DNA from: a bacterium
GTDB taxonomy: Bacteria > Verrucomicrobiota > Verrucomicrobiia > Verrucomicrobiales > Akkermansiaceae
Assembly: GCA_018222765.1 (NCBI GenBank)
Contig: JAAEZT010000016.1
Span: 1-64,000 of the forward strand
Length of the DNA: 64,000 nucleotides
Direction of reading: 5' to 3'
This document shows, one piece after another, positions 25,611 to 36,311 of this stretch. The notes below the pieces were generated by a model that saw only the letters and a list, made by a program, of their open reading frames with translations, had not been told where the DNA came from and did not search any database. The position numbers and the translations under genes were made by a program. Every line of letters begins with the position of its first letter. Positions within the stretch are counted from its first letter, which is position 1.

Positions 25611-26987
25611 CTACCACTCAAAATTTGAGCCGAAGCGATCGAGATCGGGATCCCAGACGTTGAATTCGATCTTGGAAAAGGCACTGGCATCGAAAGTCGC
25701 TTTGTCGAAGACTTGGGACGACCCATGGAGTGATTTGCCATCAAAAGTGAGGAGGTCCATGGTGATAAAGCCGCCTTCACGGAACCAGGCCCGGACATCT
25801 CCGGCACGCATTCGGGGTTCGGCTTTGGTTTCAAGATCGCCAAGACTGACGGAACTCATTCGCCTGACCGGAAGGTCAATCTCTCCGAGAGAGGTCTTGA
25901 GATACAGTTTGCCTTTTTCAATTTTATCAATGTTTCCTCTAATCGAATCCCCGTTGGCGAGGAGGATTGTTTGACCTTCCATGCCTTGAAAAAGATCTTC
26001 AGTAGCGCTTTTGCTTTTTTCGTCCTCCGCAACAGGGAGGGTTCCGTCCCATTGGGTGATGGAAATTTGGGAAACTTTGATGGGTTGTGAGTTTTGCGGG
26101 ACGAAGTGAAGCCAATCTCCAAAGCCCTTGGTGTCATCCAGATCGGTCCAGGTGCCGAGTAATTCGTTCTCGAGGAAGACGGCAGAAGTTCCCTCCTTGC
26201 GCCGGTCGAGGTAAATTCTAATCGTGGCTTTTTCCCGGTTCCTGAGATTGGTGGTTGTTTTATTGATGAGATCACTCCGTGTATTGTCAGGTCCAGTGCG
26301 GTAGAGTTGGACATACGAACGCCGAACATTCAGGGAATACCCGTTACGCAGGTAATTAGTGTCCGATTTACTCGATAGAAACATGATGTGAAAGTATGCC
26401 GAACTTTTCCACTCCACTTGACAAGAGATCATCGAACGGTCAGGGAGCTGAACTTCGCGGGCGATCCCATCCCGCGTTTTGGAGATCAGGGAGCGGTCGG
26501 CATAGCTCCAGTCCTCTTCAATATCGCCATTGGAGGAAACCCATCCGTCCAGTCCGTTTGGCCCGTCATAGAATGAAGGCGACTGTGGGTAGACGTCCAA
26601 TGCGGTCACCATGGAGCGTTTGAGAGTCAATTCGCCAGCATACCAGGTGTCCAGGGTGATACTCTCATCGTTAAGATTTACCAGTCGTCCCCGGATGGTG
26701 TCCTGACGTTTGCTGTTGAAGTGGTGATTGATGGTCGCGATGGCATAATGGTCGGATTCTGGGGAAGTGGATTCGCCATCGAGAGAGACTTCAATCAAGC
26801 GTTTGGTGTTTAAATTGATCTTCCCAATAAGTGCGGGTGAGGAAAGTTCGATTGTTTTCTGTTTTGAGTCGAAGGATGAGATCGAGCCGGTGATGTTGGT
26901 GCGATCGTCGAAGGTCAGGGTGCTCGATGTTTCGTCTCCAAAGAGAATTCCGGTGGCCAGGATGGCTGATAGGTAAAAATATTTCAC
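25611..26987 (-). CDS. Secreted '2 + jelly-roll + 2' paralogue A
   Basis: 458 residues; GTG start at 26987 and a signal peptide MKYFYLSAILATGILFG. Two short beta modules of about 40 residues (near 25-65 and 85-125), a central lectin/LamG-like domain (about 140-300; 'GPNGLDGW', then 'VEWKSSAYFHIMFLS' and 'IRIYLDRRKEG'), then two more modules ('LANGDSIRGNIDKI' near 340 and a degenerate last one). The modules follow 'L-x-N-G-D-x-I-x-G-x-I'. Clearly homologous to the next two genes, and the last of the operon. Surface carbohydrate or wall binding is an inference from the fold-like pattern. Confidence 0.75.
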   Translation of the reverse strand: MKYFYLSAILATGILFGDETSSTLTFDDRTNITGSISSFDSKQKTIELSSPALIGKINLNTKRLIEVSLDGESTSPESDHYAIATINHHFNSKRQDTIRGRLVNLNDESITLDTWYAGELTLKRSMVTALDVYPQSPSFYDGPNGLDGWVSSNGDIEEDWSYADRSLISKTRDGIAREVQLPDRSMISCQVEWKSSAYFHIMFLSSKSDTNYLRNGYSLNVRRSYVQLYRTGPDNTRSDLINKTTTNLRNREKATIRIYLDRRKEGTSAVFLENELLGTWTDLDDTKGFGDWLHFVPQNSQPIKVSQISITQWDGTLPVAEDEKSKSATEDLFQGMEGQTILLANGDSIRGNIDKIEKGKLYLKTSLGEIDLPVRRMSSVSLGDLETKAEPRMRAGDVRAWFREGGFITMDLLTFDGKSLHGSSQVFDKATFDASAFSKIEFNVWDPDLDRFGSNFEW

Positions 26988-27010
26988 GAGGTCAAATAGA
27001 GTTGGGAATC

Positions 27011-28372
27011 TTACTCCGGTTCACTGGTTTTTTTTTCTTCGGGCGCTTCTGTCTTCTCCGGTGCCACTTTGGAGTTCTCGTGGCGTGTGATTTCGCTGAG
27101 AATGCGTCGATCCAGATTTAATTCTCCTAATGAGGGGTGGGTTGCTGAGAGGGTGTCGTCGCCGAGAGTCACCGCGGAGAGGCTTAGTGCTCCTCCTGAA
27201 TGCATTGCCAATTTAAAGGGAGGTCTTTTTGAGAGGGCTTTATCTTTTTCCGAGAAATAGAGAACAGCGCAATGCTCTGTTGGAACTGCGAGAGTTTCAC
27301 TGAGTAATGGTGAACTCACCGAGAAGTGCCCCTGATTGTCAATGATCTCAAACCCGGTGACGCTTCCGCTAAAACGGTCACCATCCCCTGTGGCGAGAGT
27401 GTCGCTTTGTTTGTCTGCTCTTGACTCGCGACGAAGTTTTTGGGTTACGGTGTCCCACTCTTTGACGATGATTTTTTTGATGTAAAGGTCCCCACTGTTG
27501 GAACTGGAGCTTTTATAGATGAGGCAGGTGCCCATGGGGGGAGTCTTGGGGTCGATTCCCTGTTTGATATACTCGCCATCGAGATACAGGTGGATGATTC
27601 CTTCCCGGCGATTGATTCTGAGTTCGACGGTAAGCTCTTTATTTCCTGATTTGAAGCTGTCGAGGTTGAGTTTCGATGAAATGAGGGAGTGATATCGACT
27701 TCCTTGAACTTCTTTGCTGAGTTGGCGCCGCACCTCCAAACCGCTGGAATTAACGGTGAGAAGGTAGTTGTTGGATCCAAGTTCCGGGTCAATAGAGGTT
27801 TTGTCGCTACAGACGAAGACCTGTAGTTTTGGAGAACTGTTCCAGGTAAAGGTGGTCGACAAAATAAAGTCCTCGGGAAGATTCATCTCCCGTCCGATGG
27901 AGCCCGCCTTGCTGGCACGCAGGGAATTGTTGTAATAATCCCAATCGTTTTCGTGTTCCCAGCCATCGATTCCCTTTGGTCCCTGGAAGATGGCTTTCTG
28001 GGGAGTGACGCTGAAAAAGACGGAGTCGACATCAGCCCGGGAAGCTTCCAGAGGTCCGGCAAACCAAGTGTCGAATGAGAGGGTCGAATCGTTCAAGCCG
28101 GTGATGCGTCCTGGGAGGGAGTCACCGTTCTTCAGATTGATTAACTGGGAATGAGTCGGGTTGCCGGTAAGGTCGCCATTGTCGAAGCGAATATGTCGTA
28201 GCTCGTCGCCGATGATCTGGAGTGGCGCTGTGCTGTGGGGAGAGTTGAGGGTTATAGTGTTGTCTGCCAAACCATGGACTTTACCCTCAAAGGTGTTCCC
28301 GTTGTTAAGGGTCACCAGGTCAGTAGCTGGGGCACTTAGGCAGAGAAAGCTCGCTAGAAGAAATCGAAGCAT
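27011..28372 (-). CDS. Secreted '2 + jelly-roll + 2' paralogue B
   Basis: 453 residues from the ATG at 28372, where a signal peptide (MLRFLLASFLCLSAPA) begins; the frame is open to 28498, but that would run into the upstream gene. Same plan as its neighbours: modules 'LNNGNTFEGKVHGL' and 'LKNGDSLPGRITGL', a jelly-roll-like centre with 'GPKGIDGWEHENDWDYY', modules 'DRFSGSVTGF' and 'HPSLGELNLD', and an acidic-basic tail. Thirteen bases downstream of paralogue C. Confidence 0.75.
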   Translation of the reverse strand: MLRFLLASFLCLSAPATDLVTLNNGNTFEGKVHGLADNTITLNSPHSTAPLQIIGDELRHIRFDNGDLTGNPTHSQLINLKNGDSLPGRITGLNDSTLSFDTWFAGPLEASRADVDSVFFSVTPQKAIFQGPKGIDGWEHENDWDYYNNSLRASKAGSIGREMNLPEDFILSTTFTWNSSPKLQVFVCSDKTSIDPELGSNNYLLTVNSSGLEVRRQLSKEVQGSRYHSLISSKLNLDSFKSGNKELTVELRINRREGIIHLYLDGEYIKQGIDPKTPPMGTCLIYKSSSSNSGDLYIKKIIVKEWDTVTQKLRRESRADKQSDTLATGDGDRFSGSVTGFEIIDNQGHFSVSSPLLSETLAVPTEHCAVLYFSEKDKALSKRPPFKLAMHSGGALSLSAVTLGDDTLSATHPSLGELNLDRRILSEITRHENSKVAPEKTEAPEEKKTSEPE

Positions 28373-28385
28373 GGAGTCAGGTATC

Positions 28386-30110
28386 TTATAAATCGTTGAA
28401 CCAGTCAGTGACGTCGAATGATTCGTCATTGAAGCGGAGAAGAGTAGCGGAATCCAGATTGACTTTGAGGTTTCCCAAGAAAGGGGAGTGGCCTTCAAGG
28501 GTCTTATCGGTGGAACCTTTGGGTGTCAGGCTCAGTCTGCCGAGAGGTTTAAAAAGGAGAATCGACGGAGAATCATCCTCCCAGAGATACTTCTCATTGT
28601 CGGCATCTCCCATCGTGGATTTTTTCAATTCAAGGGATGAGATTTCTGAAACAGGAATGGTCATTTCTGCGTAGGCCGTTTTCAGATGAGCAGTGCCTTG
28701 GTCAATTTTGGTGAGGCTTCCTGAGAAGCGGTCTGTGCCATTGATCAGGAGGGCGACGTCCCGCTCTTCGTGCTCCATGCTGAGGGCTGTGTCCCGCAGG
28801 CCGTTCCATGAGGTGACGTAGATATTTGAAAGTCGGACTTTACAATTTCCGCTGGAAGAGAAACCCATCGATTTACCTTGTCCCTCAAAGGCTTGGGGAT
28901 CGGTCCACTGGGCAGCGTAGTTTCCGTTGATATAGAGGATGAAGAATTTCTTCTTGCGATCAAAGCGAAGGTCGACGGTGGCAGTTCCCGTTTCTGATAA
29001 GCTTTGTGAAACTCTGGGTCCGTCGAGTCTCACGATCTGGGCTTTGCCATTATCGTCGAATTCGCAACGGTAAAGGCTCGAGTAGCTGCTCAGGTTGAGG
29101 ACGTAGGAGGATCCAAAGGTATAGGAATGACCGGTGTTGTCGCGCTGAAGCCATGGAATGGATTGCAGGGCATTTCCCTCCTTGAGATCCCAGAGAATTT
29201 CGTGTTTCGGGGCTGGAGGTCCGGAGTCGTCCTCCTCGGTCTTCTTCTCTTCATCTTTCTTTTTCTCTGGAGACTTATCATCGTCTTCAGCGGGCGCGGC
29301 TTCTTCTCCTTCCTCATCCTCCTCCTGGCGGATTTCCGGGATAATGGGACGGGTGAAATCCGCGTGGACAGCGATGTTGAGATTCAGGCGGCCTTTCCAG
29401 CTGACTTCGAATTGCAAGCGTCCGGTATCGGGAAGGTCGGTTTTGCGAACAAGTGGAGCCTGGTCTCTTGCGTTAAAAAAAGCGGCTCCGGAGTAGACCC
29501 AATTGGGGAGTTTTGCTTCGGCCTCCTCTTCGTTTTGATCAATTTCTTCCTTCTGCTCTTCGTCCTTCTTCTTTTCGACTTCTGGATAGGTCAAGAGAAC
29601 CCAATTATCGCTGGTAAATGGTCCCGCGTAAGTGAGTTTGCCATTGAAAGGATTTGGGCTGAGCGATTTCAATTGCTCCCGGGGGATTTTGAGTTCTCCG
29701 AGAACAGGGCTGTCGAGAATGAGGTGCTTGTCAGTGAGGGATTTTATTTCCCCAGGAATTTGATCACCGTTAATGAGCGAGACATGGGAGGTCTTGCTAC
29801 TATGAATCCCGGGGCGGCCACCATTAAAGACGATCTGTCGGATTCCGTCTCTTTTTACCCGCAGTGGTCGATCGATGTCCGGGCGTTTCCAAACTACTCT
29901 GTCGTTGAGCCCACCAAATTTTCCGTGGATCAGGTCGCCGTTATCAAAGCGCATAATGTCCGTTCCGGTCGGATCGGATTTGGGGATTTTCAGGGTACCT
30001 GCTTTTTTTTCAGTTCTGGCTCCGAATGGGTTCCGGCCCTGGAGAAGTTCCAGTCCCGCAGACGTTCCACTGATGAGTGCTGTGAGGCAGAGAATGGTGC
30101 GGGCGATCAT
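28386..30110 (-). CDS. Secreted '2 + jelly-roll + 2' paralogue C, with charged insertions
   Basis: 574 residues, signal peptide MIARTILCLTALISGTSA. Modules 'FDNGDLIHGKFGGL' and 'LINGDQIPGEIKSL', a central domain, then modules 'RFSGSLTKI' and 'SPFLGNLKVNLD', ending in FDVTDWFNDL. It is longer than A and B because of two very acidic/basic insertions (about 180-205 and 265-305, nearly all E, D and K). The central domain keeps 'DLRFDRKKKFFILYINGNYA', aligning with A's 'IRIYLDRRKEG' and B's 'ELRINRREG'. Its ATG overlaps the stop of the upstream gene. Confidence 0.75.
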   Translation of the reverse strand: MIARTILCLTALISGTSAGLELLQGRNPFGARTEKKAGTLKIPKSDPTGTDIMRFDNGDLIHGKFGGLNDRVVWKRPDIDRPLRVKRDGIRQIVFNGGRPGIHSSKTSHVSLINGDQIPGEIKSLTDKHLILDSPVLGELKIPREQLKSLSPNPFNGKLTYAGPFTSDNWVLLTYPEVEKKKDEEQKEEIDQNEEEAEAKLPNWVYSGAAFFNARDQAPLVRKTDLPDTGRLQFEVSWKGRLNLNIAVHADFTRPIIPEIRQEEDEEGEEAAPAEDDDKSPEKKKDEEKKTEEDDSGPPAPKHEILWDLKEGNALQSIPWLQRDNTGHSYTFGSSYVLNLSSYSSLYRCEFDDNGKAQIVRLDGPRVSQSLSETGTATVDLRFDRKKKFFILYINGNYAAQWTDPQAFEGQGKSMGFSSSGNCKVRLSNIYVTSWNGLRDTALSMEHEERDVALLINGTDRFSGSLTKIDQGTAHLKTAYAEMTIPVSEISSLELKKSTMGDADNEKYLWEDDSPSILLFKPLGRLSLTPKGSTDKTLEGHSPFLGNLKVNLDSATLLRFNDESFDVTDWFNDL

Positions 30111-31093
30111 TTTTCGTAGATGGGGAGAAAGCGATAATTAAGAGCCAGGGAGAGTAGAGCGCCGGCGGTGGAAAAGGCCTGCCCTTTGTTTCCTGGAAAA
30201 GAACCGTTGGGAGATTGAATTGTTGAGAGATAACGAATGTTTTTCGAGTTCCACTCGTTCCAGACATTTTCGTCGGCATGAAAAAGGGCCTGGGACATGT
30301 AGTATTCAAAATAATAGGGGTAGTAGCGATCCCGGAAGTTGAGCTTCTTTGAGAGATACTTTGTGCTGGCCTTGAAGGTTTTGGTTCCGTGCTTTTTACC
30401 CAAGGCTTCGCAAAGGAGTCCGATTGCGGTAAGAGTGGGCTTGTCACCAATTCCGGAGGTGTAGCCGAAGCCACCGTCGCTGCCCCGGCATTTTGCCATG
30501 TATTTGGCTGCTTTGGCGAAGGCGGTATCAGGGACTGGGATGCCGGCATTCCGGGCCGCATAAAGTGCGACAATCTGACAACCGGAAACAGTACTGTCGG
30601 CATCGGAGCTATCCGGTGTGTAGCGCCAGGCTCCTCGCGAATTGCGCTTCTGCGCGGAGAGAATGAGGTCGACAGCTTTTTTGAGAGCAGGAGCGATTTT
30701 TTCATCTTGAAACATCCCATAGCATTCGGCCAGCGCGAGGGTGGCGAAACCATGGCTATACATGCTCGTTCCAATGTAGCCGTTACTTTCCTTTTGATTC
30801 TCGATGATGAAGTTGACGGCCTTTTGAATGTTTTGGGAATACGGTCCGTGATTGGGGTCCTCTCCGTGGGCGAGGAAGGCCATGATGCAGAGTCCAACGA
30901 CTCCGGGTTCGCTGCCATAGTGTCCCCCTTCCCAGGCGCCCTCGGCATTTTGATTTTGGGAAAGCCACTTCAGGCCCCGCTTGTAAACGGTTTCGACTTG
31001 AGCGGGAATTGGGTCGGCTTCGCGGCGGGGCAAAGTCTGTCCCATCGAAGAAAGTCCCAAGGACAGGGAAAGAGTAAGTATCAGCAGGCGCAT
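30107..31093 (-). CDS. Exported prenyltransferase/squalene-cyclase-repeat protein
   Basis: 328 residues; signal peptide MRLLILTLSLSLGLSSMG. The rest is an alpha/alpha toroid of repeated units: 'GLKWLSQNQNAEGAWEGG', 'AVDLILSAQKRNSRGAWRY', 'AKYMAKCRGSDGGFGYTS' and 'IRYLSTIQSPNGSFPG', each with the QW-like 'Q-x-x-x-G-x-F/W' ending of the terpene-cyclase superfamily. No catalytic DxDD is present and the protein is exported, so it is a binding scaffold rather than a cyclase (inference). Coupled by ATGA to paralogue C. Confidence 0.85.
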   Translation of the reverse strand: MRLLILTLSLSLGLSSMGQTLPRREADPIPAQVETVYKRGLKWLSQNQNAEGAWEGGHYGSEPGVVGLCIMAFLAHGEDPNHGPYSQNIQKAVNFIIENQKESNGYIGTSMYSHGFATLALAECYGMFQDEKIAPALKKAVDLILSAQKRNSRGAWRYTPDSSDADSTVSGCQIVALYAARNAGIPVPDTAFAKAAKYMAKCRGSDGGFGYTSGIGDKPTLTAIGLLCEALGKKHGTKTFKASTKYLSKKLNFRDRYYPYYFEYYMSQALFHADENVWNEWNSKNIRYLSTIQSPNGSFPGNKGQAFSTAGALLSLALNYRFLPIYEK

Positions 31094-31174
31094 GGGATTG
31101 GTGTGATTGTCGCTTAGGTTAGCCCTGCTCCGAGCGACAGAGTGGAGTCAGGGCGCTTTTAAAAAGCGAAGAAA

Positions 31175-31426
31175 CTACTTCTTCGTTTTGTTATAGGCGT
31201 CGAGAGCCTTTTGGAATTCGGGGGGGAGGGAAGATCCGGGGCTTCCGGCCGCTTTTGGAATGCGGCGTTCGGATTTTGCTCCTTTGCCAACACCATTATT
31301 GGCTTCGTTTGCGGAGTCGGAGTCTCCTTTTTGGCCTTCTCCGCCTTTGTCACCCTTGCCGGGTTTCTGGCCTGGCTTTTCGCCCTTGCCCATCATTTCC
31401 TGCATCATCTGAAGCATGGCACCCAT
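31175..31426 (-). CDS. Possible second half of a split exported protein
   Basis: 83 residues, Met-rich at the start (MGAMLQMMQEMMGKGE), then a long low-complexity Gly-Lys-Pro part, ending PPEFQKALDAYNKTKK. It is in the same frame as the preceding gene, separated from it only by a TGA and six sense codons. It may be a read-through extension of that gene or be translated from its own ATG, which has GAAGGA 6 bases upstream, one of the few Shine-Dalgarno sequences in this window. It has no signal peptide of its own, so as a separate product it would stay cytoplasmic. Confidence 0.5.
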   Translation of the reverse strand: MGAMLQMMQEMMGKGEKPGQKPGKGDKGGEGQKGDSDSANEANNGVGKGAKSERRIPKAAGSPGSSLPPEFQKALDAYNKTKK

Positions 31427-31444
31427 GCTTTGTCCTTCGCCCTG

Positions 31445-31807
31445 TCATGGGCTGCCTTTGGCCTTTTGTTTGGCGGCCTCGTAGATCTTTTCGACAATTT
31501 CAGTTTCGATGGCAATGGTTTCTCCCCCGGTTTCCTGATCCTCCAGGCGCTCGGTGGTTTCGGCCATGAGCATTTCAACTGCAGTAAGCAGTTCGATGAC
31601 TTTGGCGTTGGTTTGCTCGTCTATTAATTCCTGAACATCGGCTGACAGGCTGTCTTGCTTATCGGCGAGGTCATCGGATTTTTCTGCGTGGTTTTTTAAG
31701 GCCTCTACCCTAGCGCTTTCTGTAGGCTTTGCTGCCTTTTCCGGGTCGGCGTAGGCCGAGGAAAAGAGCCCGAGACCGATTAGAGTTGGGAGTATGGTTT
31801 GTTTCAT
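31445..31807 (-). CDS. Small exported helical protein, ends at an in-frame TGA
   Basis: 120 residues from the ATG at 31807, where a signal peptide (MKQTILPTLIGLGLFSSAYA) begins; earlier in-frame sequence overlaps the DUF4175 gene. The mature part is helical and acidic, 'LTAVEMLMAETTERLEDQE' and 'EIVEKIYEAAKQ', like the small proteins that follow DUF4175 genes elsewhere. The stop is TGA followed by C, a weak termination context, and the frame stays open beyond it. Seven bases after the DUF4175 stop. Confidence 0.7.
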   Translation of the reverse strand: MKQTILPTLIGLGLFSSAYADPEKAAKPTESARVEALKNHAEKSDDLADKQDSLSADVQELIDEQTNAKVIELLTAVEMLMAETTERLEDQETGGETIAIETEIVEKIYEAAKQKAKGSP

Positions 31808-31814
31808 CGCTTTT

Positions 31815-34547
31815 TTAGTTTGGTTGTTTCCGGAGGTTGAGTGAGCGGAGCATTTGCTCCAGTGATCTGGTGCGGGATCGGATGTCTTGTTCGGTTTGAA
31901 CCATCCGCATGACTTTGAGCATAAATTCGAAATCTTTTTCTTCCTGGCTGCCGCCTCCATCACCTTCGCCGCCTCCGCCACCGCCATCTTTATCGCCCTC
32001 CAGTTTTTTGGCCCATTCGCGAAGTTTTTCAGCCAGTTGTTTTGATCTCACTGCTGAAGTGAAGCTTTGATTCTTGCCGATTTCCTGACGAAGGGTTTCG
32101 AGTATGGTGTCGATGTTGTAATCCTTCATGTCATCGATTAGTTCCTTGTGGATGTCTTTTTGGGTCCGGGCGTGGAAATGTCCCAAATCCTCTTGAATCC
32201 AGCGAATATCTCCAGTGGTCCGCTTTTGTTGCAGATCAAGTTCTCCAATCAATCGCCCATGGATAGGGTCGAGCTTATCGGGGGTGGCTCCAGTGATTCT
32301 AGATTCGGCCTTTTTGTTTTCACCCCGCATGGCCGAGCCAAATGCTGAAGCAATGCCGTCCTGCTCGGAAGCTGCGCGCTTGAGTCGATTGATGAATGTC
32401 GAGGCTTCGAAATTTTGGTTGGCTTCATTGGCCTTTTTAACGGTTTCCTGCATCTTTTTAAGAGCCTCTTTTTGCTTTTCGATGGCTTTCTTGAGATCCT
32501 TCTCGGTTTTCTCCGGAGTGGATTTTTGATTTTGGGCTTCACCAAGCTTCTTTTCAATTTCGGGAAGGTCTTCTTTGGCGAGTTCCTTCATGCTGTCGAG
32601 AGCCTCGGCCATTTTCTTCATGGTGTCGGTGTCGAGGTCACCATTACGACTGGCGTCCTTGAAAAGCTTTTCCATCTTTTTGGCGATGTCTTCCATTTTC
32701 TCGGCATTTTGTTGCTCGGCGTCTTGGCTCTTGGTGAGCTTGCGTTGGGCGTCCTCTTCTTGCAGCTCTTCGGGAGTTTTCTGTTGGTCGAGACGTTCGT
32801 TTGCGTCGAGGTTGTTCATCTCGCGTCGGGTGGCGTCTTCCAACTCTCCGATGATTCGGTCGAACTTGTTTTTGAGAAGCTGGGCATGTTCGTCACGAGT
32901 CAGGATATAGACAACGATGGGTTCGGAATAGATACGCCCTCGTCCCGGTTTATAATCTTCGGCGTAGGCCGAAAGCATCAGCTTCTGTGGGGTGATTTTG
33001 TAGGTGGCCGGAGAGAAGATGGCGAGCTCGCTGAGTCGGGTTGTTGAGGGGCCTCCAGCTTTAAGAGTCATTGATCCCTCGGCGGGCTTTTCGCTGGAGG
33101 GCGCGGTGAATTCACCTTTCCAAGCGAGACCGATTTCCTTGAGGCCGAAGTCGTCTTCGCAAAGAACTTCGAATTCGAGCACTTCCTCGGCCAAGATGAC
33201 GATCTGTCGTTCGATGCCTTGCATGTAGGAAACCGGGGCCGAGTCTTCCGACGGTTGGATTTTCAAATTAAAGGTTGCGGAACCTGCGAGGCCGTATGAG
33301 TCGGTCCAGTTGAGGGGAATGGAGGCTGGGTGATCAGTTAGACTGAAGGGTTCGATCGAGAGAGTTGAGTCCTTGATGGAGAGTTTTAAGGCTTTGGGTT
33401 TCGGAACGGAAGGGGCGATGATTTCATCGTCTTCGATCAATTCCTTGAGGTTTTCTTCAGGGACGATGTCATCAGGTTCAGCGGTAGAATCGATGATCTT
33501 CTCTTCAGGAATGAGAGTGGCCTGGGCGGTGGAGAGTTCACGGGAAAAGTCACCGAGAAGAGTGATCTTGCTCCCCTCGAGTGCAGTGAGAATTCCGGTG
33601 CGGATGTCGATTTGTTGGGGCTCCAGTTGAAGATATTCCGGAAGATCGACCATTGCTTTTAGATTGGTTAACTCGGGCCGAAGTTCGGGTTGCACTTTGA
33701 TTCGAATAGAAGCGTCTCCGGCTTCCAGGGAAATGAACCCCGTGTCCTGCTGGCCCGGGAAGTCAAATTTGTAAGAGCCATCTTCGGCGAGATCGCTCTC
33801 GAGCCATTCCTGTCCGTTGAAGCTGGCGCGGGCTTTCGCTGGTTTTTGATCGCTGTTCTTTTTTAGAGGAGCAACAAAAGCAAAGGTTTCTCCTTTTGCC
33901 ACTACGAGGGGATTTGGAATTTCGGAGGTGTCGAACTGGGTAAAGGTATAGTGCTCGGTTTCCGAGAAGGGAAGAGCCCAGCGAACGAGGGCGTTTGTGC
34001 CGGCCTTGGGAGCAACAACGAATCCAATGATTGCGAGGAAGACCGCAACGATGACGCCAATGGCGAGTTTGCGATGGCGGGAATTCGGGAGAGCCTCGGT
34101 CATGTCGCGCTTCGCGGCTTGGCGGGCAACGTGCTCCATGGCGGCCGCGCGGAGTTCGGGCGAGAGGGTCTCGCGTGATTCGCTTTGGTCCTGAAGCTCG
34201 ACGATGCCTAGGAGGCGGTCACCGAGTTTGGGGAACTTTTTGGAGATGAGCTTGGCGAGCTGATCCTCTCGGCGATGTCCGAAGACCCAACGGCGCACCA
34301 TGAGCGGTGCGAAAACCGCACTCAACGAGGTGCCGGCGATGAGGATGCTAAATCGAGCTAGGGGAGGGATTGGGAAGATCCGCTCCAGCAGGAAGACGAC
34401 AAGGAAAGAGATGATGAGACCGAAGATTCCCGCGAGAACAGCTTCGGTGACTTTGACTCTCCAGAGACGTTTTTGAAATTCAGCGAGCTGTTTTTGTAGC
34501 TCCTTAGGAATAGGGGCCTGCGGGGCGGATGGAGAGGTCTCGGGCAT
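31815..34547 (-). CDS. DUF4175-type membrane protein
   Basis: 910 residues. Three N-terminal membrane segments (about 36-56, 60-82 and 160-182) are followed by a large extracytoplasmic region: beta-rich, Ig-like to about 570, then a long charged coiled coil (about 580-740, many K, E, Q), and a Gly-rich stretch (GGGGGEGDGGG) before a conserved tail 'FMLKVMRMVQTEQDIRSRT'. This layout fits DUF4175 proteins of Verrucomicrobiota and Planctomycetota, usually near MoxR and DUF58 genes; those are absent here. First gene of a seven-ORF operon of exported proteins. Envelope function is inferred. Confidence 0.85.
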   Translation of the reverse strand: MPETSPSAPQAPIPKELQKQLAEFQKRLWRVKVTEAVLAGIFGLIISFLVVFLLERIFPIPPLARFSILIAGTSLSAVFAPLMVRRWVFGHRREDQLAKLISKKFPKLGDRLLGIVELQDQSESRETLSPELRAAAMEHVARQAAKRDMTEALPNSRHRKLAIGVIVAVFLAIIGFVVAPKAGTNALVRWALPFSETEHYTFTQFDTSEIPNPLVVAKGETFAFVAPLKKNSDQKPAKARASFNGQEWLESDLAEDGSYKFDFPGQQDTGFISLEAGDASIRIKVQPELRPELTNLKAMVDLPEYLQLEPQQIDIRTGILTALEGSKITLLGDFSRELSTAQATLIPEEKIIDSTAEPDDIVPEENLKELIEDDEIIAPSVPKPKALKLSIKDSTLSIEPFSLTDHPASIPLNWTDSYGLAGSATFNLKIQPSEDSAPVSYMQGIERQIVILAEEVLEFEVLCEDDFGLKEIGLAWKGEFTAPSSEKPAEGSMTLKAGGPSTTRLSELAIFSPATYKITPQKLMLSAYAEDYKPGRGRIYSEPIVVYILTRDEHAQLLKNKFDRIIGELEDATRREMNNLDANERLDQQKTPEELQEEDAQRKLTKSQDAEQQNAEKMEDIAKKMEKLFKDASRNGDLDTDTMKKMAEALDSMKELAKEDLPEIEKKLGEAQNQKSTPEKTEKDLKKAIEKQKEALKKMQETVKKANEANQNFEASTFINRLKRAASEQDGIASAFGSAMRGENKKAESRITGATPDKLDPIHGRLIGELDLQQKRTTGDIRWIQEDLGHFHARTQKDIHKELIDDMKDYNIDTILETLRQEIGKNQSFTSAVRSKQLAEKLREWAKKLEGDKDGGGGGGEGDGGGSQEEKDFEFMLKVMRMVQTEQDIRSRTRSLEQMLRSLNLRKQPN

Positions 34548-34850: not shown

Positions 34851-36311
34851 ATGATTGAATTTCCTCGAGATCGCCAACAAACCATCCCTGAAAGTGCAGT
34901 AAAAATTATCGGTTTGGGAGGTGCCGGAGCCAATATGCTCGATCGCATTGCTCTGGACGGAATCGAAGGAGCTGAGCTGCTTGCATTGAATACTGATGTG
35001 CGGACCCTGAAGAGTTCGGTGGCAGGCGAAAAAATCCAGTTGGGCCCCAATCTGACCAAAGGCCTCGGGGCCGGTGGCGATCCAGAGATCGGTGAAAAGG
35101 CGATTTTAGAGTCAGAGGATGAGATTCGCGACGTATTGCGGGATCGCAAGATAGTCTTCATCTGCGTGGGCCTCGGTGGCGGAACGGGATCTGGAGCGGC
35201 ACCGATTGCGGTGCGCTTGGCCAGAGAAGCGGGGGCTTTTGTGGTGGTCTTTGCGACCATGCCTTTTGCCTTCGAGGGGAATCGTCGACGTATTCAAGCT
35301 GAAGAGTCATTGAACCAACTGGCGGTTCTGACCAATGCCTTGGTCACTTTTGATAATACTCGCATGGGTGAGCTGGTGCTGCCAAAGCAGGGTGTTCACG
35401 AGGCATTCTCTGCTGCCGACCGAATGATTTCCGACAGTATTACTGCAGTTGCGCGATTGGTTCTGCGTCCCGGTTTGATCAATGTGGGTCTCGATGAACT
35501 GATGACAGCCTTGAAGACGACCCGCTCACGCTGTCTCTTCGGTTCCGGATTGGGGCGTGGAGATAATCGTGCGCAAATCGCGCTCAAGGCCGCGTTGGGA
35601 AGCCCACTTCTGGATAGTGGATCCTTGCTCGAAGATGCCACTACGGTTCTCGTGCATATTTGTGGGGGAGAGGATATGACTCTTTTTGAAATCGAGCTTC
35701 TCATGGAAGGTCTGACCAAGCACATCCCAGACAATGCCCATTTGTTATTCGGAGCCGCGACGGACAAGGCGATGGGGAAAGCCCTGAGTGTTACGATCAT
35801 CAGCGCGCTGCCCGAGGAACGATTGCAGTCGGCCCAAGTATTCGCGGCATCGGAAGAGGTCGAGGTGATTGAGATCGAAGGACTCGAGGAGGAGTTAGCG
35901 GAAGAGTCGGTTGAGGAAGAAGTTTCCGATGCCGAGCCGGAAGGTTTGGAGGACGAGGAGATTGTGGAAGAAGACGAGATCGTCGAGGAAGAGGATATTG
36001 TCGAAGCTGAAGAGGACGATGAAATTCCTGAACTCGATGACGAAGGACATGATTTCGAATCACCGGAACTCCGCATTATGGACGAAGAGGAGCCTGAGGC
36101 CATCGTGGAAGTCGAAGAAACTCCCGAGGAAGAACCCGAGCCCGTTGTCGAAGAATCCCAAGCCGAGAACCCTAAGAAGGGTGCCGGGCAGGCAGAGCTT
36201 CTTCTCGAAGGTGGGCCGAAAGGCCGTTTTCAGGGAGAGCAGCCTAACGTCATTGAAGGCGAGGATCTTGACGTCCCGCCTTATCTCCGAAAGAAACGTC
36301 GAAATCGCTAG
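34851..36311 (+). CDS. ftsZ: Cell division protein FtsZ with an acidic linker and variant T7 loop
   Basis: Tubulin-like GTPase that forms the division ring. 486 residues. The GTP-binding domain has 'NTDVRTL' (47-53) and the tubulin signature GGGTGSG (109-115). The T7 loop, which completes the active site of the neighbouring subunit, reads NVGLDEL (211-217) where E. coli has NVDFADV, so the first Asp is Gly and the second is Glu, with a new Asp between. A strikingly acidic disordered linker (about 335-455) ends in the conserved tail 'DVPPYLRKKRR', which docks FtsA/ZipA-type partners. No ftsA or ftsQ is adjacent; ribF follows. Confidence 0.95.
   Translation: MIEFPRDRQQTIPESAVKIIGLGGAGANMLDRIALDGIEGAELLALNTDVRTLKSSVAGEKIQLGPNLTKGLGAGGDPEIGEKAILESEDEIRDVLRDRKIVFICVGLGGGTGSGAAPIAVRLAREAGAFVVVFATMPFAFEGNRRRIQAEESLNQLAVLTNALVTFDNTRMGELVLPKQGVHEAFSAADRMISDSITAVARLVLRPGLINVGLDELMTALKTTRSRCLFGSGLGRGDNRAQIALKAALGSPLLDSGSLLEDATTVLVHICGGEDMTLFEIELLMEGLTKHIPDNAHLLFGAATDKAMGKALSVTIISALPEERLQSAQVFAASEEVEVIEIEGLEEELAEESVEEEVSDAEPEGLEDEEIVEEDEIVEEEDIVEAEEDDEIPELDDEGHDFESPELRIMDEEEPEAIVEVEETPEEEPEPVVEESQAENPKKGAGQAELLLEGGPKGRFQGEQPNVIEGEDLDVPPYLRKKRRNR

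What the first reader, a model, noticed from the sequence alone, without database searches (positions are those of the whole stretch)
25611..34547. A seven-ORF operon of exported proteins led by DUF4175, without MoxR or DUF58
Seen: DUF4175 membrane protein, small exported helical protein with its split tail, alpha/alpha-toroid protein and the three paralogues all read the same way with gaps of at most 82 bases and two ATGA or near overlaps. Established: DUF4175 genes in related phyla commonly sit with MoxR AAA+ ATPase, DUF58 and vWA genes. Here these are replaced by the toroid and jelly-roll proteins. Inference: all members act together in the envelope, with the toroid as scaffold. This is the strongest candidate in the window for an undescribed system.
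Basis: partly seen in the sequence, partly recalled or inferred. Interest (0 to 1): 0.72.

Follow-up and report, generated by a model that had tools for sequence, protein, structure and literature searches.

The report
A hidden selenoprotein in envelope operon
One of the operon's exported proteins, which looks like two broken reading frames, appears to be a single selenium-containing protein of a kind I found nowhere described, made by reading a stop codon (UGA) as selenocysteine in marine relatives of Akkermansia.

Summary
The operon is real and conserved: DUF4175-like membrane protein, small exported protein, toroid, three lectin-fold paralogues. It is six genes, not seven: the "split tail" is the same frame interrupted by an in-frame TGA. 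Of 80 named relatives, 39 carry TGA there (51 codons, no TAA or TAG) and 41 are one unbroken gene. TGA carriers share a hairpin with its loop 22 nt after the last UGA in 34 of 39; 36 of 39 fit the published bacterial SECIS model, against 15 of 131 ordinary TGA stops. The tail is under purifying selection. The genome has SelA, SelB, tRNA-Sec and a UGA-containing SelD. SelB is in 36 of 39 TGA carriers and 7 of 41 others; this is clade-structured, so not independent. Best reading: a selenoprotein family that I did not find described, with one or two Sec in a linker and mostly no cysteine counterpart. Pfam DUF4175 is not met. The operon's function is unknown; Sec insertion is not shown experimentally.

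The parts
31815..34547 (-). DUF4175-like membrane protein (910 aa): N-terminal hydrophobic helices, Ig-like beta domains (about 200-549), long C-terminal helices
   Evidence: ORF; matches in 33 of 38 relatives, in some only a distant paralogue or a contig fragment; AlphaFold pLDDT 83.9; Ig-like matches, best Z 9.8 with rmsd 8.8; no PF13779 match. Membrane helices judged by eye, no predictor run
31175..31807 (-). candidate selenoprotein gene (209 sense codons plus one in-frame UGA): signal peptide (by eye), helical domain, UGA-containing linker, Met-rich segment, low-complexity part, conserved C-terminal motif
   Evidence: same frame through TGA; alignment A1; unbroken in 41 of 80 relatives; tail median dN/dS 0.166
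31445..31447 (-). in-frame UGA read as selenocysteine (aligned with the second of the two UGAs present in many relatives)
   Evidence: internal stops are TGA only in 39 of 39 TGA-bearing named loci
31412..31430 (-). SECIS-like hairpin: 8-bp stem AAGCAUGG/CCAUGCUU, loop GUG, loop 22 nt after UGA
   Evidence: same stem length and loop type as the hairpin after the UGA of SelD in the own genome (8 bp, loop GUC, but 33 nt after UGA)
30107..31093 (-). alpha/alpha toroid (squalene-hopene-cyclase-like repeat protein, 328 aa), with a signal peptide by eye
   Evidence: PF13243 35.7 bits and PF00432 34.8 bits, both over cut-off; family alignment A5
28386..30110 (-). JR1, paralogue 1 (574 aa)
27011..28372 (-). 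JR2, paralogue 2 (453 aa from the ATG at 28372): small beta barrels flanking a ConA-like jelly roll
   Evidence: AlphaFold pLDDT 88.3; residues 122-310 L-type-lectin fold, Z up to 17.9; start codon
25611..26987 (-). JR3, paralogue 3 (458 aa, GTG start)

Best explanation
The second and third ORFs are one gene for an exported selenoprotein. The ribosome makes the signal peptide and helical domain, meets UGA, and SelB with Sec-tRNA(UCA), held by the hairpin whose loop lies 22 nt downstream, inserts selenocysteine, so that the Met-rich segment and conserved C-terminus are also made. Without that, only the N-terminal half appears. Shown by sequence comparison: one reading frame, UGA-only interruption, a conserved hairpin at a nearly fixed distance, purifying selection on the tail, complete Sec machinery in the genome. 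Inferred: that Sec is really inserted, that the protein is exported and acts with the DUF4175-like membrane protein, the toroid and the lectin-fold paralogues in the envelope, and that Sec serves redox or metal chemistry, or selenium-dependent control, there.
For: UGA-only: 39 of 80 named loci have internal TGA (51 codons, none TAA/TAG); the other 41 are one unbroken ORF of 205 or more codons. In the genus 21 of 23 genomes with a match have TGA, 2 have no stop. Hairpin: 36 of 39 meet the published bacterial SECIS model (3-9 nt loop, 4-16 bp stem, G in the first two loop positions, 16-37 nt, at most -7.5 kcal/mol; passages of PMC13188914) by my own implementation, against 15 of 131 true TGA stops of neighbouring genes and 116 of 645 random codons; under a stricter cut (at most -10, stem 7 or more) 34 of 39 against 10 of 645. 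The Gly codon in the hairpin is GGT in 39 of 39, though GGT is 20% of Gly codons in the neighbouring DUF4175-like and toroid genes. Last TGA to AGCATGG (GGCATGG in L182, L207) is 15 nt in 34 of 39. Outer pair G-C 11, A-U 5, broken 1 of 17 genus sequences. Tail median dN/dS 0.166, N-part 0.136. Machinery in the own genome: tRNA-Sec with anticodon UCA, SelB 272 bits, SelA 488 bits, SelD with in-frame TGA and a like hairpin. SelB in 36 of 39 TGA+ and 7 of 41 TGA- genomes.
Against: No protein or RNA data. The SelB association is clade-structured: the independent-pairs test had too few informative pairs. The window's hairpin is no more stable than dinucleotide shuffles (z 0.21), so the case rests on comparison. 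In one search three of five covariation measures exceed all 500 shuffles, but two do not (pairs changed on both sides 155 of 500, further pair types 491 of 500), seven of eight stem pairs never vary, and the protein sequence explains part of that. No Rfam SECIS family matched in the stretches scanned (L107 and four relatives, not the window itself). 3 of 39 (first-UGA-only loci L147, L159, L163) fail the model at any hairpin, the shared loop being about 40 nt away. 35 of 41 TGA-free members lack Cys from the helix domain on; only L179 and L198 have one in the linker, so a conserved chemical role of Sec is not shown. 3 TGA carriers have no SelB over cut-off (L137, L139, L193: MAGs 80% and 88% complete and one of 2.0 Mb).
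Confidence: 0.9

Rival explanations
1. Two separate genes: UGA is an ordinary stop, and the tail starts at the ATG at 31424-31426 by reinitiation.
For: An ATG lies 18 nt after the stop and is in frame. Purine-rich stretches precede it in the window (AAGGA) and in many relatives; I did not test them as ribosome sites.
Against: The protein is a single chain in all 41 TGA-free named loci. The ATG lies inside the conserved stem. The stop is TGA only, never TAA/TAG. A tail started there would have no signal peptide (inference). Hairpin position and loop fit SECIS.
Confidence: 0.04
2. UGA is read through by a near-cognate tRNA, helped by the hairpin, without selenium.
For: The UGA codons are mostly followed by C, a context recalled (from no call) as leaky; in TGA-free relatives the linker is rich in Ser, Gly, Gln and Lys, rarely Cys.
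Against: The hairpin meets bacterial SECIS constraints and resembles the hairpin after the SelD UGA in the same genome. TGA carriers are found in clades that have SelB, and a clade of 25 SelB-free rows has no TGA.
Confidence: 0.05
3. Sequencing error or decaying gene.
For: Most of the genomes are draft MAGs.
Against: TGA at this place occurs in 39 species-level genomes of several genera; no TAA/TAG; tail dN/dS about 0.17.
Confidence: 0.005
4. One reading: DUF4175 operon in which toroid and jelly-roll proteins replaced MoxR/DUF58, with the toroid as scaffold.
For: Order conserved; no MoxR or DUF58 among 19 ORFs around the operon.
Against: Toroid and JR-like genes occur together with DUF58 in 4 of 10 other-family genomes, and the own genome pairs a toroid with a vWA/BatA/DUF4175 cluster. 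Nothing here tests a scaffold role.
Confidence: 0.1

Closest known systems
Bacterial selenoproteins (SelB / bSECIS decoding), e.g. SelD, FdhF
   Same: In-frame UGA, hairpin just downstream inside the coding region, loop beginning with G then U, SelA/SelB/SelD/tRNA-Sec in the genome. SelD of the same genome has an 8-bp stem with loop GUC.
   Different: The full-length window protein has no NCBIfam match and only a sub-threshold Pfam hit (DUF3450, 14 bits, cut-off 32.6); among 21 family members only scattered weak hits. Known selenoprotein families were not searched one by one. Sec lies in a low-complexity linker, in 12 of 39 loci as two Sec; mostly no Cys counterpart.
Pfam DUF4175 (PF13779) and A. 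baumannii AdvA
   Same: Large membrane protein with periplasmic and helical parts; AdvA carries a DUF4175 domain and is described as a critical division protein (PMC7481262, two passages seen). In 16 of 66 named loci, all of the window's genus, the operon is divergent from ftsZ.
   Different: The window protein does not reach PF13779; 2 of 37 family members match, best E 1.6e-4. ftsZ is not the neighbour in the other 50 loci, so a division role is only a lead.
MoxR/DUF58/vWA (Bat-like) clusters
   Same: Relatives of this operon's first gene, toroid and JR protein lie near DUF58 in other families, with BatA in one.
   Different: None of these lies among the 19 ORFs scanned around the window's operon; four of the six DUF58 matches of this genome are listed, on contigs C12, C14, C21 and C49, and the other two were not printed.

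Membership tests
Bacterial selenoprotein | In-frame UGA followed by conserved coding sequence in the same frame | tested here: met
   tail median dN/dS 0.166 over 59 usable of 91 pairs (14 sequences)
Bacterial selenoprotein | Interrupting codon is UGA only | tested here: met
   51 TGA, 0 TAA/TAG inside the gene in 80 named loci
Bacterial selenoprotein | bSECIS hairpin downstream (published constraints) | tested here: met
   Window: 8-bp stem, loop GUG, 22 nt, -11.8 kcal/mol; 36 of 39 relatives. Own implementation; energy alone not exceptional
Bacterial selenoprotein | SelA, SelB, SelD, tRNA-Sec in the genome | tested here: met
Bacterial selenoprotein | Cys-containing homologues at the Sec site (usual, not defining) | tested here: inconclusive
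   2 of 41 TGA-free members have Cys in the linker; 35 of 41 have none from the helix domain on
Bacterial selenoprotein | Selenium found in the purified protein | not testable with these tools
   needs 75Se labelling or mass spectrometry
Pfam DUF4175 (PF13779) | Score over the curated cut-off (27.3 bits) | tested here: not met
   No match for the window protein at E 1; 2 of 37 family members match, best E 1.6e-4, bits not shown. A protein of another cluster in the same genome does reach it, 31.8 bits; BLASTP between the two gives E 0.17
MoxR/DUF58 cluster | DUF58 or MoxR gene in the same operon | tested here: not met
   None among 19 ORFs between 19733 and 40919
Squalene-cyclase-like alpha/alpha toroid (PF13243, PF00432) | Score over curated cut-off | tested here: met
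   35.7 and 34.8 bits
ConA-like / L-type lectin fold (JR2) | Structural match of the central domain | tested here: met
   Model residues 122-310, Z up to 17.9, rmsd 2.5, 175 aligned; fold only, no binding shown; JR1 and JR3 not modelled
SelL and other two-Sec selenoprotein families | Sequence similarity to those families | not tested
   family recalled; no profile for it was run

The most novel reading that the evidence does not exclude
The UGA and its hairpin act as a selenium gate: when selenium is scarce the cell exports only the N-terminal half, when it is plentiful the full chain, so the envelope complex built by this operon changes with selenium supply. Sec would matter mainly as a translational switch, which would explain why the site lies in a linker, has one or two UGAs, and is filled by unrelated residues in relatives without SelB.
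Probability: 0.25. Interest if true: 0.78.

Novelty: new member of a known kind. Interest (0 to 1): 0.66.

Why it matters
It adds a widespread, apparently undescribed selenoprotein family to Verrucomicrobiota (39 of 80 named loci), in a place (an exported protein, in a linker, mostly without Cys counterpart) that homology-based selenoprotein finders tend to discard: the deep-Sep authors write that selenoproteins lacking Cys-containing homologues may be filtered out (PMC12013277, passages). Standard gene calling cuts the protein in half, as the ORF list here does. It also gives a direct handle on an otherwise mute conserved operon: growing a cultured relative with and without selenium should change one of its components.

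Tried and rejected
Pfam and NCBIfam scans gave no name for JR1-3, the first protein or the small protein beyond sub-threshold hits (the small protein full length and 20 relatives); PHROGs gave nothing for three of the proteins. A profile of the small family matched no PDB chain at E 1. Rfam scan of L107 and four relatives gave tRNA-Sec and one chance-level hit. Energy z-scores of single hairpins are not decisive (window 0.21, L141 -3.17, L153 -1.58, L207 -0.12); the fifth sequence of that call, from TGA-free L154, was taken from the wrong stretch and is no control. tRNA-Sec model hits alone are not specific (hits in all 14 control genomes, over the cut-off in 5), hence ARAGORN and SelB. The independent-pairs test of TGA against SelB was uninformative. 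Reinitiation, readthrough without selenium and decay were considered and judged unlikely. A division role through ftsZ was considered: neighbour in 16 of 66 loci only. The top Foldseek rows for JR2 are receptor-binding domains of clostridial neurotoxins, their partner proteins and sialidases, with whole-chain rmsd of 16-23 A and TM at most 0.32 for the first sixteen; I take this as the shared jelly-roll fold, not kinship, and fetched none. One Foldseek job for the DUF4175-like model was not collected; its VIA-align look was. One search's last part (codon table around the hairpin) crashed; one search gave codon counts instead. A search for the SelD site found nothing because of my pattern; one search found it. 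Whole-genome search with PF13779 found nothing although one search finds a match in the same genome. Literature searches: (listings with abstract starts); none listed a selenoprotein of this kind. Passages only were read of PMC7481262, PMC13188914, PMC12013277, PMC9312934, PMC2398784; in PMC5029168 my terms did not occur. The library is open-licence PMC only.
Full report
What is there. On the minus strand from 34547 to 25611 the window has a DUF4175-like membrane protein (910 aa), a small exported protein, a toroid (328 aa) and three paralogues (JR1-3). Signal peptides and membrane helices were judged by eye. The 'split tail' ORF (31175-31426) is in the same frame as the small protein and is separated from it by a single TGA at 31445-31447. 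So there are six genes.

Conservation of the operon. The first protein has matches in 33 of 38 relatives, in some only a distant paralogue or fragment, the toroid in 38 of 38, paralogues included, JR2 in 25 of 38. In 80 loci from named assemblies (Akkermansiaceae, Roseibacillus, Rubritalea, Haloferula and others; 80 kept of 93), DUF4175-like lies upstream of the small gene in 76 of 76 loci with enough flank, the toroid downstream in 70 of 77, and three JR genes in 64 of 71. The seven loci without a toroid there are L175, L191, L192, L199, L202, L204 and L210. ftsZ lies next door in 16 of 66, all in the window's genus.

The TGA. Among 27 genomes of the genus, 23 have a match to the small family; 21 carry one or two in-frame TGA and 2 (G010, G011) none; the TAG listed for G039 is its terminal stop. 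In the 80 named loci, 39 carry internal TGA, 51 codons in all, and none has an internal TAA or TAG; the other 41 are one unbroken gene of 205 or more codons. L187's contig ends soon after its TGAs. Twelve of the 39 have two TGAs, six codons apart in 11 and three apart in L180; the window has only the one that aligns with the second. In L147, L159 and L163 only the first remains, and the second site is Ser (TCA, TCT, TCA).

The hairpin. All 39 share [A/G]GCATGGGT[G/T/C]CCATGCT. It begins 15 nt after the last TGA in 34, 21 nt in L144 and L146, and 33 nt in L147, L159 and L163. In 17 genus sequences seven of eight pairs are invariant and the outer pair covaries (G-C 11, A-U 5, broken 1). A second helix, between the two TGAs, is paired in 87.9% of cells with two pairs changing on both sides. 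Three of the five covariation measures exceed all 500 shuffles and two do not; relatedness is not controlled there. Part of the conservation follows from the protein sequence, but Gly is GGT in 39 of 39 against 20% use in neighbouring genes. By my implementation of the published bacterial SECIS constraints (PMC13188914, passages) 36 of 39 pass at the last UGA, as does the window. Controls: 15 of 131 real TGA stops of neighbouring genes and 116 of 645 random codons pass; at the stricter cut 34 of 39 against 10 of 645. The window hairpin is not unusually stable against shuffles (z 0.21).

The tail is translated. Over 14 genus sequences the median dN/dS is 0.136 before the TGA (66 usable of 91 pairs) and 0.166 after it (59 usable; the rest saturated).

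The machinery. The own genome has tRNA-Sec with anticodon UCA, SelB at 272 bits (cut-off 242), SelA at 488 bits and a SelD that itself contains an in-frame TGA (that this is SelD's usual Sec site is recalled), followed 33 nt on by the loop GUC of an 8-bp stem, much like the window's hairpin (8 bp, GUG, 22 nt). SelB over cut-off is present in 36 of 39 genomes with TGA and 7 of 41 without. Fisher's test gives 2.5e-12, but the rows are related: on a toroid tree of 71 rows TGA needs 8 changes and SelB 6, in most pairs that differ in TGA the SelB state does not differ, and the independent-pairs test could not reach significance. What stands is that TGA occurs in separate clades that have SelB and in none of the 25 rows of the large SelB-free clade.

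Structure and roles. JR2 is modelled well (pLDDT 88.3) as small beta barrels around a ConA-like jelly roll. The first protein is modelled (pLDDT 83.9) with N-terminal helices, Ig-like domains and long helices. The toroid is a squalene-cyclase-like repeat protein. None of this gives a function; a role in the envelope is inferred.

Ten genomes of other families carry this gene set (G024-G028, G031-G033, G035, G036; in G027 and G035 it is split over contigs). DUF58 lies within about 7 kb of the DUF4175-like gene in G025, G026, G036 and, divergent, G027, and also in a second locus of G001; one search's list was cut, so this is a lower bound. Those loci have toroid and JR-like genes too (for G001's second locus an AhpC/TSA-domain protein in place of JR). 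So the toroid and paralogues did not replace DUF58; this lineage has the operon apart from it. The own genome has another vWA/BatA-DUF4175-toroid cluster, whose DUF4175 protein does reach PF13779 (31.8 bits).

Verdict. The operon itself is a conserved but ordinary-looking gene set of unknown function. The finding of value is that its second gene is very probably a selenoprotein of a family that I did not find in print (searches; open-licence PMC only).

Noticed in passing
L085 (own genome G000:C2:10000-27673): Another cluster in the same genome: vWA/BatA-like, vWA/GATase-like, a 1525-aa protein over the PF13779 cut-off, and a toroid. The whole-genome search with PF13779 missed it, so that search can give false negatives.
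   Followed up: partly
G000:C60:58831-59760 (L218): SelD of this genome is itself a UGA-containing selenoprotein; of the 27 genomes with SelD, 25 show a TGA in the full-length match, G014's split match also has one, and G024 has none.
   Followed up: partly
L141:5358-5389 and homologues: In two-UGA members the second UGA often sits in the loop or stem of a hairpin that follows the first UGA, so decoding of the two may be coupled.
   Followed up: no
L175, L191, L192, L199, L202, L204, L210: Seven loci (five from MAGs labelled Akkermansia muciniphila) keep the DUF4175-like and small genes but have no toroid downstream; the six with enough flank have no JR genes either.
   Followed up: no
[quoted passage not shown]
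   Followed up: partly
window 34851-36311: ftsZ is divergent from the operon in most of the window's genus and encodes a long acidic C-terminal tail.
   Followed up: no
L207: Carries two toroid genes in a row and a diverged UGA region.
   Followed up: no
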